IMG/VR virus record: IMGVR_UViG_3300017733_000015
Coordinates: 1 to 37,866 of that record
Direction: 5' to 3' (one strand)
DNA: 37,866 nt
Source: a virus
The notes under the pieces are model-generated. The model saw only the letters and a list, made by a program, of their open reading frames with translations. It was not told where the DNA came from and ran no database searches. The position numbers and the translations under genes are program-made. Positions 3,455-35,413 of the stretch are shown here, in pieces (position 1 is the stretch's first letter; every line of letters starts with the position of its first letter).

Positions 3455-3823
3455 TTACTTCTTAAGAAACTTAGAAGCTCCTCTGAATCCAAAGCTTGCA
3501 GCTACAATCACACCTAACAAATACTGGTAAAAAGGTGGAGCTGTCTCTAAAGCTTGAAAGAAAGTATGTACTCTTTCTTCTTCCCCTAGCAAAAGCATTA
3601 TAAGGGGGATGGTAAAAATTATGGTGAGCCATTCGTCTTTCCATGAGCTGTCTGCATTTTTCTGTGCTTCTATATCCCACTCAATTTCACCAGTGACTTT
3701 CTTCTCCATAATCTTTGTTTCTGCTTGTACCTGTAATAACTTTTGTTTGGCCTTTTGTTTTTTAGTCTCAAAATATCCTTTGACTACATCACCAAGTAAA
3801 CCAGCTACTGCTCCAAAAATCAT
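3455..3823 (-). CDS. Holin-like protein (GTA-type 3TM holin family)
   Basis: This 122-residue protein has an N-terminal hydrophobic segment (IFGAVAGLLGDVV), a charged coiled region rich in Lys, Gln and Glu (residues 20-55), then a membrane segment (LTIIFTIPLIMLLLG, about 66-80) and another (YQYLLGVIVAASFGFRGASKF, about 98-118). This order, with a WKDEW motif just before the middle segment, fits the 'holin of 3TMs, for gene-transfer release' family. Such proteins open the inner membrane so that the amidase can reach peptidoglycan. It sits among other small membrane proteins upstream of the small terminase. Confidence 0.82.
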   Translation of the reverse strand: MIFGAVAGLLGDVVKGYFETKKQKAKQKLLQVQAETKIMEKKVTGEIEWDIEAQKNADSSWKDEWLTIIFTIPLIMLLLGEEERVHTFFQALETAPPFYQYLLGVIVAASFGFRGASKFLKK

Positions 3824-3832
3824 ATAGTTCTC

Positions 3833-4282
3833 CTATTTGGATGTTAACATTTTATAGTTAAAAGAAAATATAACGACAACAGCTACAAGTAAAAGTCCAA
3901 TACCGATATAAGATGCTATCTTTACAAGCTCTGCTCTTTCCTTTGCTTTTCTTTCTCTTTCTTTTTGTTTCTTTTTTCTTATGTCACTTCTAATTGCTAT
4001 GAACTCATCCCAAGCATTAGGAGCACCATACCACATAAAGAGTTCTCTTAGTTGATTCTCCATGTCATGTACTTTTTTAAGATTAAAATAAGTATCTAAA
4101 GCTTCTTCATTAGAAGAGGTAAACCAACTGCTTTTTTTCTTCTTATGCTCTTCTTCAACCACATTCATTTGTTTGACAAATTTTACAATGTGGTGGCTCA
4201 CATCATTGAGTTGTTTTCCGATTTCTACACCAGATTTTATGGCAGCAAATGCACTTGTTGCCAGGCTTACAGGATCAAGCAC
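3833..4282 (-). CDS. Conserved phage membrane-anchored protein, 149 residues
   Basis: The protein starts MLDPVSLATSAFAAIKSGVEIGK and has a long soluble, charged middle with a WYGAPNAWDEFIAIRSDIRKKK motif near residues 90-110. The end is a basic helix and one hydrophobic segment (ASYIGIGLLLVAVVVIFSF, about 123-142). I recognise the opening and the 'Y/GxxAWDE' motif from proteins common in marine T7-like phages near the lysis and terminase genes, without a known function. A C-terminal anchor with a cytoplasmic coiled part would fit a spanin-like or lysis-control partner, but that is a guess. Confidence 0.8.
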   Translation of the reverse strand: MLDPVSLATSAFAAIKSGVEIGKQLNDVSHHIVKFVKQMNVVEEEHKKKKSSWFTSSNEEALDTYFNLKKVHDMENQLRELFMWYGAPNAWDEFIAIRSDIRKKKQKERERKAKERAELVKIASYIGIGLLLVAVVVIFSFNYKMLTSK

Positions 4283-8671: not shown

Positions 8672-9331
8672 TTAACCTAAAGCAATAGCCAATGCTGTAG
8701 CATCAGCAAGTGAAGTTTCACCATCAGTACCTGCACTTCCTTGTGCACCAGTGTTACCAACTGGAATGCCAAGTGTGAAATTTAAAGTAGCAGCTTGAGT
8801 TGTACCTGAGTTTGTAATAGCAACTGTAGCACTACTACCAGCACTCAAAGTGTTTGTCGTTACAGATCCAACAGCTACAGTAGCTCCATTAGAATCTACA
8901 TAACTTTTAGTAGCTGCATCTTGAGCTGCTGATGGATTAGTAACATTTTTAATACGTCTGCTTGTTGCATCAAATTGATCAGTGCTATCTTTTACTAAAG
9001 CATCACCAGCAATATCAATAGACTCTTGAGCCATATTAAAAGCTTGAATACTATCGTTATCTAGATCTGATTCCTTAAAGACAGAACCAGCAGCATAATC
9101 AACGAGTCTTGTAGATTGACTTGTAGCTCTTCTTATTTCTATTACGGCATCTTGAGCTGGAGGTGTTCCAAACTGTACTTGATTAGAACTAGGAAAAGTG
9201 TAGTGAGTTGTAATTGTCTTAGTTACTCCATCAACCTTTACGATAACATCATCAGTTGATCGGTAACTAAAAGGTACACTGAATGTAGTGGTACTGTTAT
9301 TGCCAGTATAACGATTTAAAGCAAATGCCAT
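8672..9331 (-). CDS. Tail fibre, T7 gp17 N-terminal domain type
   Basis: The first 140 residues match the T7 tail-fibre attachment domain: MAFALNRYTGNNSTTTFSVP, YRSTDDVIVKVDG, VIEIRRATSQSTRLVDYAAG and the AQESIDIA helix. This part binds the fibre to the tail tubes. The protein is only 219 residues against 553 in T7, and ends soon after a short GNTGAQGSAGTDGETS collagen-like stretch. It therefore lacks a tip domain, which the separate adaptor-type fibre proteins encoded downstream probably provide. This modular split is the most notable feature of the tail genes. Confidence 0.9.
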   Translation of the reverse strand: MAFALNRYTGNNSTTTFSVPFSYRSTDDVIVKVDGVTKTITTHYTFPSSNQVQFGTPPAQDAVIEIRRATSQSTRLVDYAAGSVFKESDLDNDSIQAFNMAQESIDIAGDALVKDSTDQFDATSRRIKNVTNPSAAQDAATKSYVDSNGATVAVGSVTTNTLSAGSSATVAITNSGTTQAATLNFTLGIPVGNTGAQGSAGTDGETSLADATALAIALG

Positions 9332-31275: not shown

Positions 31276-33720
31276 TTATGAAAAAAAGAACTCAGATTCT
31301 AATACCTGATCTATAATTAGATCTCCTTTTTTTGGTGGCATCGGAACTTCATCCTTTTTTGATTCAGGAAGCATTGAAATAATGTCATTCCTAAAATCCA
31401 TTAACACATCATGGCTCTTGTAGATATCAACAAAAGTTGCTCTACAACATTCACCAAGACGTTCTACATCAGCAGCTAGTGTTCCATAACTATCGTGCAC
31501 CATAGCAAAATCTTTTATACCCTCTGCAAAAGCAGTGCATAAAGTCATTTGTAAATGGCAACTATCAAGAGCATGCACCCAGTTAGGTGAAACTCCTGCT
31601 GCTTGTTTTCTTTTATCCCACTTACTATTAAGATTCTCATTTGAAACTTTAAGTTGTGGTCTAAAAACTTTTCCCATTAGTTTTGTTTGTATTTGTAGTG
31701 GCTTGTAGTTTTCGTAAGCTTGTTGCACTGGAAAACCCATAGGTGTATACCACACTATAGGAATACCCTCGGCACTGGCAATTCGTGCGACATCTTGTAA
31801 CCATTTCATTACCTTAGATGCAGCTTCAATTACATCACTGGCCACCTGCCACATAATTTTTGCAAGGTAGCTACAAGCTTTTAATAGCTCATCACCAAAA
31901 GGGTGCATGTGACCTTTCTCTTTTCTTTTTTGAACTATTTCATTTACAAAATCAGTCCAGGAATATTGTCTACTGCCATAGCATATTGTCATGGTAGGTC
32001 TTTTAGCTATACTTCTATCAACACCAAAATCTAACCACTTTTTAGCAAAGGGGTTTTCTTCTTTTTGTAATTTCAGTATTACATTGTCTGCAACCTTTTG
32101 ATAAATATCAGCAGGTACTTCACTTGGAATCATATTAACTTGTTTGCCAGTTACTAAGCTTCGTATTGATGCACTAAAGTGCTGAAGACCTGAACAAGTT
32201 GCATCCATAGATATTGGCAGTGAACTTTTGTATTCTGTTCCTTGATCTAAAAAATTTCTCCATTCTAAACAAAATGCTAAAAACTGCCAGGGGTCATCTG
32301 CATCCATCCAAAATTTATTGTTGTAAGGATCTTCGGCTGAAGCTTTTATGTTATCACTATTTTTTTCAACAAAATCTATTCGATCTTGAAAGGAGCACTT
32401 ATCATATCCAAAACAATTAGAGCCATGAATTGCAAGATAGCATGCACCTTGCTCACCTAATGATTTTGCATTGGCAAAAGTTAGTAATGCTTTTTGATAA
32501 TCAGCTCCTTGTGGATTTAAAAAGGCAGTAGTTGCATATAACCTACCTCTAAAATCTAATTGATAAGGAAAGTAAAACTTATAGGTGTAAAACTTATCAG
32601 CTAACTCAAATGTTTTTGCACATTGTATCTGCTTTGATTTATGTCTTTCTACCTCACCATACCACACTACCATCTGAGCTTTATACTTTCTAAGTATCTC
32701 TTTGTTTTTTAATGACTCTTCACTTGGTTTAATTGGTTTCTCATCTTTAAGATCACCAGGAATTGATCCAACAGTATGACCTTTCTCCCAAAAATGTTTT
32801 TGTACTTTTAAAATTTCTCTATTAATAACAAAAGGTGTTTCCTGACAAATATTTATAGAATCATAAACACCAGTCATATCTTTCTCAGATAACTCTTGAA
32901 GATATTTATTGTTTTTTGTTTTAACAACAGTAAGTGGTGGTAGATGGTTAGAGTAATAGCCACCTCCATAAGGTGACTGCCATAACTTTGGTATTACAAC
33001 TGTTGGTAATCTTTCAGGATGTAATATTGAACCTCTAAGTTTTTTTTCTTTTATCCATTTAATACATTTATCAGTTGGACTAATAAATTTTTGTACCTTT
33101 TTACCTTTTCTAAAATCTAACTCTGAAAATAAATCACTTACTAATTCTACTATGACATATAAAGTTCTTCCTACTCGGAGTTTATCTTTTACAGTCCACT
33201 CTATTCTTTGGAGACCATCTCTTTGTGATGCTTCTAGGTATTTTCTGCGACTATATTCATATCCTGCATTTCTACTTTTTAAATCTGAATAAATTTTAGT
33301 AAACAATTCTGGGTTTTGTTCTGCCATAGCTTCACAATTTATTTCGTCTAAAATGTGTTTGCCAATTTTTATAAATGTAGATGTAGCAGGTTTTCTTCTA
33401 GTTGCATTGTTAAGTAAAGTCTTCAGTGTAATAATTGCTGCTTTATCAGGTTCTATTAATTGTAAGTTCTCAATAGCTTGTGCTCTTAGCACTGGACTGT
33501 TCTTTGCTTTTTCATTGGCTATATACTCATCAAGTTTATCAGCCACTGGTTGTATGTAATGTTTAACTAAATACTTGGCATAATCTGTAGTTGCTTCCTG
33601 ACCTCTGTCTTTTTTCTTTTCGTTGTTTTTCTCATATCTGTTGATGCCTAGCACTCGACTCTCAAGCTCTAAGTTTATTTGTTCCTCAAGGTTTACTTGC
33701 TCTTTTATCTTATCTGCCAT
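31276..33720 (-). CDS. Single-subunit RNA polymerase (T7 gp1-like)
   Basis: An 814-residue polymerase (T7: 883) that transcribes the middle and late genes. Catalytic residues: Asp506 in SMDATCSGLQH, Lys573 and Tyr581 in AKRPTMTICYG, Asp743 in MVHDSYG, equivalent to T7 Asp537, Lys631, Tyr639 and Asp812. PYQLDFRGRLY is at 385-395. The promoter-recognition loop equivalent is about 672-712. The C-terminus ends FFFS, resembling the aromatic FAFA foot of T7. The leader is TATAAGGAGTAGTAATG. Its promoter sites cannot be predicted from the loop by eye. Confidence 0.97.
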   Translation of the reverse strand: MADKIKEQVNLEEQINLELESRVLGINRYEKNNEKKKDRGQEATTDYAKYLVKHYIQPVADKLDEYIANEKAKNSPVLRAQAIENLQLIEPDKAAIITLKTLLNNATRRKPATSTFIKIGKHILDEINCEAMAEQNPELFTKIYSDLKSRNAGYEYSRRKYLEASQRDGLQRIEWTVKDKLRVGRTLYVIVELVSDLFSELDFRKGKKVQKFISPTDKCIKWIKEKKLRGSILHPERLPTVVIPKLWQSPYGGGYYSNHLPPLTVVKTKNNKYLQELSEKDMTGVYDSINICQETPFVINREILKVQKHFWEKGHTVGSIPGDLKDEKPIKPSEESLKNKEILRKYKAQMVVWYGEVERHKSKQIQCAKTFELADKFYTYKFYFPYQLDFRGRLYATTAFLNPQGADYQKALLTFANAKSLGEQGACYLAIHGSNCFGYDKCSFQDRIDFVEKNSDNIKASAEDPYNNKFWMDADDPWQFLAFCLEWRNFLDQGTEYKSSLPISMDATCSGLQHFSASIRSLVTGKQVNMIPSEVPADIYQKVADNVILKLQKEENPFAKKWLDFGVDRSIAKRPTMTICYGSRQYSWTDFVNEIVQKRKEKGHMHPFGDELLKACSYLAKIMWQVASDVIEAASKVMKWLQDVARIASAEGIPIVWYTPMGFPVQQAYENYKPLQIQTKLMGKVFRPQLKVSNENLNSKWDKRKQAAGVSPNWVHALDSCHLQMTLCTAFAEGIKDFAMVHDSYGTLAADVERLGECCRATFVDIYKSHDVLMDFRNDIISMLPESKKDEVPMPPKKGDLIIDQVLESEFFFS

Positions 33721-33928
33721 TACTACTCCTTATAACTGACATTAAATACAACCATATAGGCATTAAAATCATCGGTTGACATAGAGACAAGGCTATTTTG
33801 TTGGGAAGGAAATCAAAGAATGCCGAGGTGCAAGGAAGATGCTTAAGATTTTGAATCCTTTGCATAAAATCAACCCTTGCTCACTGTGGCTTTCAAAGTA
33901 GCCAATGTCACTATGTCACCAAATCGTG
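33721..33928. other. Candidate attP region between integrase and RNA polymerase genes
   Basis: This 208-base gap has no gene. At its centre, GATTTTGAATCC (33847-33858) is identical to 35011-35022 in the tRNA-Leu gene, where it is the anticodon loop and part of its stem. Around it lie inverted repeats: ATGC (33839-33842) with GCAT (33862-33865), and GCAAGG (33830-33835) with CCTTGC (33875-33880). Four RTGTCAC direct repeats lie to the right. A core with inverted binding sites plus short direct repeats beside int is how tyrosine-recombinase attP sites look. In cyanophage P-SSP7 the tRNA-Leu-matching att sequence is also just downstream of int. Confidence 0.5.
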
Positions 33929-33943
33929 TCACTTTAGTGTCAC
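33905..33943 (+). repeat. Four RTGTCAC direct repeats
   Basis: ATGTCAC at 33905 and 33913 and GTGTCAC at 33926 and 33937 are in the same orientation, 8, 13 and 11 bases apart. Two lie in the gap and two run across the end of the integrase gene, including its TGA stop. Possible roles are arm-type integrase binding sites next to the candidate attP, or operators for the RNA polymerase gene. The half GTGTCA also occurs in the palindrome before the marR gene, so a shared regulator is worth considering. Confidence 0.6.
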
Positions 33944-34933
33944 CACTTTGTTAGACTGTAATATGTCTCTTGCTTGCTCTAAGTTCTTATCACATAAGTG
34001 AGCATAACGTAGAGTTGTTTGCATGGATTTGTGACCCATCCACTTCATAACCACAGTCAGTGGTACACCTTTTTGTACCAGTCGAGATGCACAAGTGTGT
34101 CGGCAAATGTGTGGTACAAAATCTTCATCATTCCTATCTAAATGAATCCTTACTCGATTCCACCAAGCTCTAACCTGATGGTCTTTAAAAATAAACCTAT
34201 TGTATTTCTTTAATATACTCGCAGCTCTATCAGTCAAATATACAGTCCTCTCTAAATCATTCTTACTACCATAGACAATCATAGAATTATCTTTTTCGTT
34301 TAAGTCTTTAAAAGAAACTTTGAGAGCTTCACTTCTCCAACGTAGTCCAGTGTCTATTAAGAATACTACAAAGTCAGAGAACTCTTTGTTGCACTGGTCA
34401 AGAAATTTTGTGATCTTTGCTTCGTCATCATCAGATAAAAAACTAAGTCTACCTTTACCCTCTTTAAGTTGTTCAAGTTTAGGTTGATGCTCTAGTGCAC
34501 CTATCTTAACTGCATATCTAAATGACCTACTCATGACTGCATTGTATCGATTAACTGTTGCATTAGATACTTTACGTTGTTCTGTGAGGTGGTCTCTAAT
34601 TTCTTCCAAGTGTCTATACTTAATGCAGCTTACTGGTAAGTTTTTACCTAAGATATCCATAATGAGTTTCATCTTAGAAAAACTATTTAGTTTAACCTCA
34701 TGCTCATAGAATCGTTTATGTACGTCAGAAAATAAGTTCTCTAAAGTGTATATAGATTTTACCTTTTTACCAGTTGGTATAGGTAAACCTTTTTCTAGTG
34801 CATGCATCACTTCAGCATAAAACAACTTAGCTTCACTTTGTGTTGCAAACACTGGCCTTATTCTCTGTGGCTTGTGATCTTTACCAAGAAAACAATCAGC
34901 AATCCACTTGTTTCCTCTAAATATTACTCCCAC
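33929..34933 (-). CDS. int: Tyrosine integrase
   Basis: 334 residues with an N-terminal arm-type domain (1-60), a SAM-like core-binding domain (about 61-155) and a C-terminal catalytic domain. Catalytic residues: Arg198 in TGLRWRSEAL, Lys224 in SKND, His275 and Arg278 in HICRH, His301 in MGHKS and nucleophile Tyr310 in LRYAHL. It would integrate the phage at attB. The start codon is GTG, with GAGGAG six bases upstream. It lies between the tRNA-Leu and the candidate attP. All active-site residues are intact, so a temperate lifestyle is possible. Confidence 0.95.
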   Translation of the reverse strand: MGVIFRGNKWIADCFLGKDHKPQRIRPVFATQSEAKLFYAEVMHALEKGLPIPTGKKVKSIYTLENLFSDVHKRFYEHEVKLNSFSKMKLIMDILGKNLPVSCIKYRHLEEIRDHLTEQRKVSNATVNRYNAVMSRSFRYAVKIGALEHQPKLEQLKEGKGRLSFLSDDDEAKITKFLDQCNKEFSDFVVFLIDTGLRWRSEALKVSFKDLNEKDNSMIVYGSKNDLERTVYLTDRAASILKKYNRFIFKDHQVRAWWNRVRIHLDRNDEDFVPHICRHTCASRLVQKGVPLTVVMKWMGHKSMQTTLRYAHLCDKNLEQARDILQSNKVVTLK

Positions 34934-34964: not shown

Positions 34965-35051
34965 TGGTAGAGGTGGTGGGACTTGAACCCACAAGAACCG
35001 AAGTTCACTGGATTTTGAATCCAGCATGTTTACCAATTTCATCACACCTCC
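34965..35051 (-). tRNA. tRNA-Leu (anticodon CAA), intact, CCA encoded
   Basis: The 87-base sequence folds completely: acceptor GGAGGTG with CACCTCT (first pair G-U), D stem ATG/CAT with a GGTAAA-type loop, anticodon arm CTGGA-TTCAAAA-TCCAG with CAA at 34-36, long class II variable arm GAAC-TTCG-GTTC, T arm GTGGG-TTCAAGT-CCCAC, discriminator A and an encoded CCA. The long variable arm confirms leucine type; it reads UUG codons. The first base is the G of the marR TAG stop. Either it overlaps an attachment site or it replaces a host tRNA interrupted by integration. Confidence 0.95.
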
Positions 35052-35413
35052 TAATGTATACAAGAATTTAATTTTGTATGTATTCTCTCAGCTAATCTCT
35101 CACCTTTATATGTAAGTTTGACTAGCTTGTTTCTCCTATCAGTAGGGTCTTCAAAAGACTCTACAAGCTCGTGACCTTTCTCTCTATGCCTATTTATTGC
35201 AGATAAAGTTGCAACATTTCTAGACAGTGTTGATTGTGGCATATTTAAGTTTACTACTAGTTTCTGCATTGAGATACTCTCACTTGCCATAGCAACATTT
35301 AAAAATGTTCTCATTGTCTGTACTAGCATTTCTGAGTCGTATTCTTGAAAACACTGATAAATGTCATCAAGACAAGCAAAACTTTTATTTTGCTTTACTT
35401 TTTTTGTATTCAT
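35051..35413 (-). CDS. MarR-like winged-helix regulator
   Basis: A 120-residue protein whose helix-turn-helix reads SMQKLVVNLNMPQSTLSRNVATLS (about 48-71), followed by the wing EDPTDRRNKLVKLTYKGERLA (about 91-111), matching the MarR 'DxRxxxLxLTxxG' signature. N-terminal and C-terminal helices would make the dimer. AGAGGAGTAATTA precedes its ATG. It sits beside tRNA-Leu and int, where temperate phages keep lysogeny control genes, and no CI-like repressor is visible. It may therefore regulate lysogeny or early transcription. A palindrome GTGT-TATG-ACAC lies 16 bases upstream. Confidence 0.85.
   Translation of the reverse strand: MNTKKVKQNKSFACLDDIYQCFQEYDSEMLVQTMRTFLNVAMASESISMQKLVVNLNMPQSTLSRNVATLSAINRHREKGHELVESFEDPTDRRNKLVKLTYKGERLAERIHTKLNSCIH

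What the first reader, a model, noticed from the sequence alone, without database searches (positions are those of the whole stretch)
34965..35051. Complete phage tRNA-Leu(CAA) that may replace a host tRNA split by integration
If the integration core is the anticodon loop of a host tRNA-Leu(CAA), insertion would break or alter that gene. The phage carries an intact, CCA-encoding tRNA of exactly that anticodon one gene away from the candidate attP. A compensating tRNA would let the integrase target the middle of an essential gene. The alternative is that attP is in this tRNA gene itself and it rebuilds the host copy.
Basis: inference. Interest (0 to 1): 0.6.

Follow-up and report, generated by a model that had tools for sequence, protein, structure and literature searches.

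The report
Phage tRNA replaces one broken by integration
This ocean virus probably inserts its DNA into the middle of a bacterial leucine-tRNA gene, breaking it, and carries its own intact copy of that gene so the infected cell survives; the trick is already known from related viruses, so this is a good new example and not a new mechanism.

Summary
The tRNA is real: an intact tRNA-Leu(CAA) with encoded CCA at 34965-35051, minus strand. It lies in a lysogeny block on that strand: MarR-like regulator, tRNA, tyrosine integrase, a 12-bp copy of the tRNA anticodon arm (33847-33858), then the phage RNA polymerase. The window is a T7-like, HTVC019P-type phage, probably of SAR11 or a similar AT-rich marine alphaproteobacterium.

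Best explanation: tRNA-dependent lysogeny. The integrase recombines the 12-bp attP core with the anticodon loop of host tRNA-Leu(CAA). The host gene is split and not rebuilt, and the phage tRNA replaces it. Support is comparative. In related phages the carried tRNA and the attP core change together (Leu-CAA, Leu-UAA, Cys). Eight sister genomes whose attP holds 23-43 bp of tRNA, enough to rebuild the gene, carry no tRNA. Lineages that lost the regulator also lost the tRNA. A Pseudomonas prophage of the same architecture joins phage DNA to a host tRNA-Leu(UAA) 3' half at the homologous place and keeps its own tRNA intact.

Not shown: a lysogen of this phage, its host, or that tRNA-Leu(CAA) is essential. 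The mechanism is published for actinophages, rhizobial phages and a freshwater SAR11 prophage. New member of a known kind.

The parts
34965..35051 (-). intact tRNA-Leu(CAA), CCA encoded; inferred replacement for the host gene
35011..35022 (-). GGATTCAAAATC in the tRNA anticodon stem-loop, identical to the attP core
33847..33858 (-). candidate attP core GGATTCAAAATC between integrase and RNA polymerase
33777..33789 (.). inverted-repeat arm flanking the core (possible arm-type integrase site)
   Evidence: function inferred
33906..33918 (.). partner inverted-repeat arm on the integrase side of the core
   Evidence: function inferred
33929..34933 (-). tyrosine integrase, 334 aa
   Evidence: phrog_1, E 2.7e-50
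35051..35413 (-). MarR-like regulator, 120 aa; its stop codon overlaps the first base of the tRNA
   Evidence: (phrog_9665)
31276..33720 (-). T7-type RNA polymerase that bounds the attP gap

Best explanation
tRNA-dependent lysogeny in a T7-like marine phage. On infection the regulator-tRNA-integrase block is expressed. [quoted passage not shown] Because attP carries only about 12 bp of tRNA sequence, neither junction rebuilds the host gene. The intact phage tRNA-Leu(CAA), now in the prophage, takes over decoding of UUG and keeps the lysogen viable. Shown: the parts, their order, the core identity, co-variation of tRNA and core across lineages, and a prophage junction in a homologous Pseudomonas system. 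Inferred: expression, the integration event, the host, and the rescue in this phage.
For: (1) tRNA and core co-vary. The window, L002, L003 and L008 carry tRNA-Leu(CAA) and core GGATTCAAAATC. HTVC200P, HTVC119P, S28-C10 and their viral-contig relatives carry tRNA-Leu(TAA) and an 11-12 bp core of the GACTTAAAATC type at the same place after int. HTVC019P carries an unannotated tRNA-Cys and a 15-bp tRNA-Cys core. LUZ100 carries tRNA-Leu(TAA) and ACTTAAAA. (2) Contrast: HTVC022P, 201P, 021P, 105P, 109P, S35-C6, Bylgja and 134P have attP sites holding 23-43 bp of the target tRNA and no tRNA anywhere in the genome. (3) L225, a Pseudomonas-type isolate prophage: int, then CAACAGACTTAAAA fused to a host tRNA-Leu(UAA) 3' half, with its own tRNA-Leu(UAA) intact upstream of int. 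(4) A SAR11-order prophage has the same kind of junction in tRNA-Leu(UAA). (5) The regulator is found exactly in the window-clade loci that keep the tRNA. L004 and L005 lost the regulator and the tRNA 5' part; L006 and L007 also lost the core. (6) Exact attB cores exist in tRNA-Leu(CAA) of AT-rich alphaproteobacteria. (7) T-stem changes between the window and L008 are compensatory.
Against: No lysogen or hybrid junction of this clade was found. The host is unknown, and the complete SAR11-type genome examined has GACTCAAAATC, not the core. The phage tRNA carries the full 12-bp core itself, unlike several relatives, so the integrase might act on it. L004 and L005 keep the core without an intact tRNA. 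L225 and L188 show one junction each; the other end was not available. No tRNA was seen in the 26 kb of the L188 prophage that is assembled. L110 has a tRNA-like core but no tRNA near int.
Confidence: 0.82

Rival explanations
1. The tRNA is a relic picked up by imprecise excision from a tRNA attachment site and has no function now. This is the published reading for LUZ100, whose authors cite Zhao et al. 2019 for the same idea in pelagiphages.
For: tRNA-Leu genes lie beside integrases in these phages; stated in PMC10134795.
Against: Relics should decay, but stems stay paired with compensatory changes. Carriage tracks short attP cores and is absent with long ones. HTVC019P's tRNA-Cys is about 4 kb from int. 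The tRNAs are diverged from the host genes compared here, not fresh copies.
Confidence: 0.08
2. attP is the phage tRNA itself: crossover inside it gives two hybrid tRNAs and rebuilds the host gene.
For: The phage tRNA contains the same 12 bp.
Against: Prophage junctions in homologous phages lie downstream of int, in L225 with the upstream tRNA intact. Sister pelagiphages have their tRNA-half attP in the same int-RNAP gap.
Confidence: 0.04
3. The tRNA supplements translation of UUG codons during lytic growth, unrelated to integration.
For: A common explanation for phage tRNAs (own knowledge).
Against: UUG is rare in this phage, 8.0% of Leu codons and 6.9 per 1000, no more than in pelagiphages without the tRNA. 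It does not explain the match of core and tRNA or the joint loss with the regulator.
Confidence: 0.04
4. The tRNA protects against host tRNA-cleaving defences.
For: Proposed for phage tRNAs in general (discussed in PMC10865867).
Against: No tRNA-cleaving defence was looked for, and the idea does not predict the link between core length and tRNA carriage.
Confidence: 0.02

Closest known systems
tRNA-dependent lysogeny of actinophages (Fionnbharth, LeBron, Gaia; PMC10865867)
   Same: Tyrosine integrase, short core (8-17 bp) in a host tRNA gene, tRNA not rebuilt, cognate phage tRNA; Gaia uses tRNA-Leu-CAA with an 8-bp core.
   Different: Those are actinophages, with experimental proof for several. 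This is a T7-like marine phage with no experiment.
Fonsibacter prophage uv-Fonsiphage-EPL, with HTVC011P and HTVC025P (HTVC019P-type group III; PMC6811365)
   Same: Same phage group; [quoted passage not shown]
   Different: Target there is tRNA-Leu(TAG); here it is inferred to be tRNA-Leu(CAA). No lysogen is known here.
Rhizobium phage vTRX32-1 / RHEph01 (PMC8631192) and Lo5R7ANS-like Sinorhizobium prophages (PMC11476347)
   Same: 12-bp core within a tRNA-Leu in vTRX32-1; [quoted passage not shown]
   Different: The vTRX32-1 phage tRNA lacks the 12-bp motif, said to prevent super-integration; the window tRNA contains its full core.
Pelagiphages HTVC022P and HTVC105P, and T7-like cyanophages (PMC12753301, PMC8776855)
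   Same: T7-like, integrase, tRNA target, attP downstream of the integrase.
   Different: HTVC022P and HTVC105P attP carry about 40 bp of the tRNA, enough to rebuild it, and these genomes carry no tRNA; cyanophage attP sites are reported as perfect matches to regions of host tRNA-Leu genes.

Membership tests
tRNA-dependent lysogeny | phage-encoded tyrosine integrase | tested here: met
   phrog_1 E 2.7e-50
tRNA-dependent lysogeny | attB overlaps a host tRNA gene | tested here: inconclusive
   Core equals the tRNA-Leu(CAA) anticodon arm of some AT-rich alphaproteobacteria; host unknown; shown only in homologues L225 and L188
tRNA-dependent lysogeny | common core too short to rebuild the tRNA | tested here: met
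   12 bp against the phage's own tRNA and against tRNA-Leu(CAA) of G152, G251, G332 and G507; the flanks of the core do not continue as tRNA
[quoted passage not shown]
   tRNA-Leu(CAA); target isotype inferred from the core
tRNA-dependent lysogeny | phage tRNA needed for viable lysogens | not testable with these tools
   needs a tRNA deletion experiment
HTVC019P-type pelagiphage (Autographiviridae) | T7-like RNA polymerase and terminase with pelagiphages as nearest relatives | tested here: met
   terminase 65-66% and RNAP 41% identical to HTVC031P and relatives
classical tRNA integration with reconstitution | attP carries a tRNA half that rebuilds the gene | tested here: not met
   only 12 bp in attP, against 23-43 bp in eight sister genomes

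The most novel reading that the evidence does not exclude
T7-like phages may switch repeatedly between rebuilding the host tRNA (long attP) and replacing it (short attP plus own tRNA), within one phage group and on the same host tRNA. The replacement tRNA would then be a lysogeny gene that decays once lysogeny control is lost. In the window clade the rescue tRNA still contains the complete attP core, so integrase could act on the phage's own tRNA and delete int or admit a second phage.
Probability: 0.45. Interest if true: 0.5.

Novelty: new member of a known kind. Interest (0 to 1): 0.38.

Why it matters
It extends tRNA replacement at integration to another lineage of marine T7-like phages and to another tRNA, Leu(CAA). 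It gives comparative evidence against the published reading that tRNA-Leu genes beside these integrases are relics. It also gives a simple sequence rule for predicting integration sites: look for the carried tRNA's anticodon loop just after int. The complete SAR11-type genome examined has 33 tRNA genes with single copies of the leucine isoacceptors, so loss of one could matter.

Tried and rejected
Hybrid attL/attR junction patterns for this clade in viral contigs: none; also none for the HTVC200P type. The integrase scan of genome contigs gave only two distant hits. Integrase search of the order of G332 found nothing, and of 397 genomes of the order of G217 found no close prophage. A tRNA-Leu(CAA) pattern in 147 genomes of that order matched none because my T-loop part was too strict, so it says nothing. 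The other end of the SAR11-order prophage was not found in its assembly. HTVC019P first looked like an exception (short core, no tRNA near int); scanning its whole genome revealed a tRNA-Cys. Codon-usage support for a translation role was sought and not found. No 12-bp core was found near int in Lo5R7ANS by comparison with its own tRNA. Zhao et al. 2019 was not in the library.

Full report
Observation. The window holds one tRNA gene, tRNA-Leu(CAA), at 34965-35051 on the minus strand, confirmed by Rfam. It encodes CCA. The stems are fully paired in L002, whose tRNA is identical to the window's. The window is a virus record of 37,866 bases with terminase, capsid, connector, T7-type RNA polymerase, primase-helicase and ribonucleotide reductase. 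Nearest terminases are those of HTVC019P-type pelagiphages (65-66%), and the RNA polymerase is 41% identical to theirs. The host is therefore probably SAR11 or a similar marine alphaproteobacterium; this is inference.

Anatomy. Reading along the minus strand: MarR-like regulator (35413-35051), tRNA (35051-34965), integrase (34933-33929), a 12-bp sequence GGATTCAAAATC (33858-33847), RNA polymerase (33720-31276). The regulator's stop codon shares one base with the tRNA. The 12-bp sequence is identical to the tRNA anticodon stem-loop. In 20,000 dinucleotide shuffles of the int-RNAP gap a match this long arose in 0.3%, and within the anticodon arm in 0.1%; no other place in the genome shares 12 bp with the tRNA. 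Inverted repeats flank the core at 47 and 57 bp, resembling repeats at about 55-66 bp in several pelagiphages. Arm-type integrase sites are a possible reading, but L006 keeps a similar repeat without the core.

Relatives of this phage. Seven viral contigs encode close integrases (78-100%). L002, L003 and L008 keep regulator, tRNA and core. L004 and L005 (integrase 97% and 96%) have lost the regulator and the 5' part of the tRNA, keeping only 3' remnants next to int, and still have the core. L006 and L007 (78%) have neither regulator, tRNA nor core. No other tRNA was found in the records of L004-L007, which are incomplete. The regulator and the tRNA are thus lost together, as expected if both serve lysogeny.

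Co-variation test. If the tRNA compensates for the target, a phage with another target should carry another tRNA. HTVC200P, HTVC119P and S28-C10 carry tRNA-Leu(TAA), antisense, between regulator and integrase, and an 11-bp copy of that tRNA's anticodon loop after int. About twenty viral contigs show the same, with cores of 11-12 bp at tRNA position 30 or 31. Many of these are close relatives and not independent. HTVC019P has a 15-bp core matching a SAR11-type tRNA-Cys and carries an unannotated tRNA-Cys at 8946-9019. LUZ100, a Pseudomonas T7-like phage, has regulator, antisense tRNA-Leu(TAA), integrase and an 8-bp core.

Contrast test. HTVC022P, HTVC201P, HTVC021P, HTVC105P, HTVC109P, S35-C6, Bylgja and HTVC134P have attP sites holding 23-43 bp of the target tRNA, mostly its 5' half, and ARAGORN finds no tRNA in any of these complete genomes. 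Counting phages, 0 of 8 with long attP and 6 of 6 with short attP (window, HTVC019P, HTVC200P, HTVC119P, S28-C10, LUZ100) carry the cognate tRNA. By hand arithmetic the Fisher probability is 1/3003, but the genomes are related, so the number is only indicative. The HTVC019P and HTVC200P cores match SAR11-type host tRNAs independently of the phage tRNA. HTVC022P is reported to integrate at tRNA-Cys (PMC12753301), which agrees with the attP reading used here.

Prophage evidence. L225 comes from an IMG/VR record whose name suggests an isolate genome; its integrase is 87% identical to that of LUZ100. After int it reads CTGCAACAGACTTAAAA, as in LUZ100 attP, then continues as the 3' half of a host tRNA-Leu(UAA) with CCA and host sequence. 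Its own tRNA-Leu(UAA) lies intact 12 bp upstream of int. No 5' half is restored at that junction. A genome of the SAR11-like order (G703) holds a T7-like prophage whose int-side junction is AGACTTAAAATCC followed by the host tRNA-Leu(UAA) 3' half. In both cases the other end was not available, so a phage-borne 3' half at the unseen end is not excluded; for L225 the attP of LUZ100 and L224 makes it unlikely. No tRNA was seen in the assembled part of the G703 prophage.

Host site. tRNA-Leu(CAA) genes of small AT-rich alphaproteobacteria contain the exact 12-bp core (G152, G251, G332, and G507 in the order of G217). In G332 three displaced 3' halves beginning at ATTCAAAATCC lie near the intact gene, so this anticodon loop is a used integration site there. 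Whether loss of tRNA-Leu(CAA) would be lethal is not known; tRNA-Leu(UAA) might read UUG (own knowledge).

Rivals. The relic hypothesis is published (PMC10134795) but does not explain the link to core length and identity. Codon supplementation is unlikely: UUG is 8.0% of Leu codons, no more than in pelagiphages without the tRNA.

Known systems. The mechanism was proven for actinophages in 2024 (PMC10865867). It was stated earlier for a SAR11 (Fonsibacter) prophage of this same phage group with tRNA-Leu(TAG) (PMC6811365), for Rhizobium phage vTRX32-1 with a 12-bp core (PMC8631192), and later for Sinorhizobium prophages like Lo5R7ANS (PMC11476347). The original pelagiphage paper (Zhao et al. 2019) was not in the library, so parts of the comparison may be described there. 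This finding is a new member of that kind: another lineage and another tRNA.

Noticed in passing
HTVC019P KC465901 8946-9019 (L206): Unannotated tRNA-Cys in the type pelagiphage. Among the tRNA-Cys-type phages read here it is the only one with just a short Cys core.
   Followed up: yes
L029 2453, 6768, 8338 (genome G332): Three displaced 3' halves of tRNA-Leu(CAA), all starting at ATTCAAAATCC in the anticodon loop, lie within about 7 kb of the intact gene: an integration hot spot.
   Followed up: partly
L188 6204 (genome G703): T7-like prophage in a SAR11-order genome, integrated in the anticodon loop of tRNA-Leu(UAA); the other end is missing from the assembly.
   Followed up: partly
L036, L039, L208, L206: Phage tRNA anticodon stems differ from the host's beside the loop, so they share less with attP; this may keep the integrase off the phage's own tRNA. 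The window's tRNA does not show this.
   Followed up: partly
L110 around 3502-3850: Integrase relative with a GGCTTAAAATC sequence after int but no tRNA found near it.
   Followed up: no
L059 and L060 (genome G449): Two tRNA-Leu(TAA) genes about 1.45 kb apart in a genome of the SAR11-like order.
   Followed up: no
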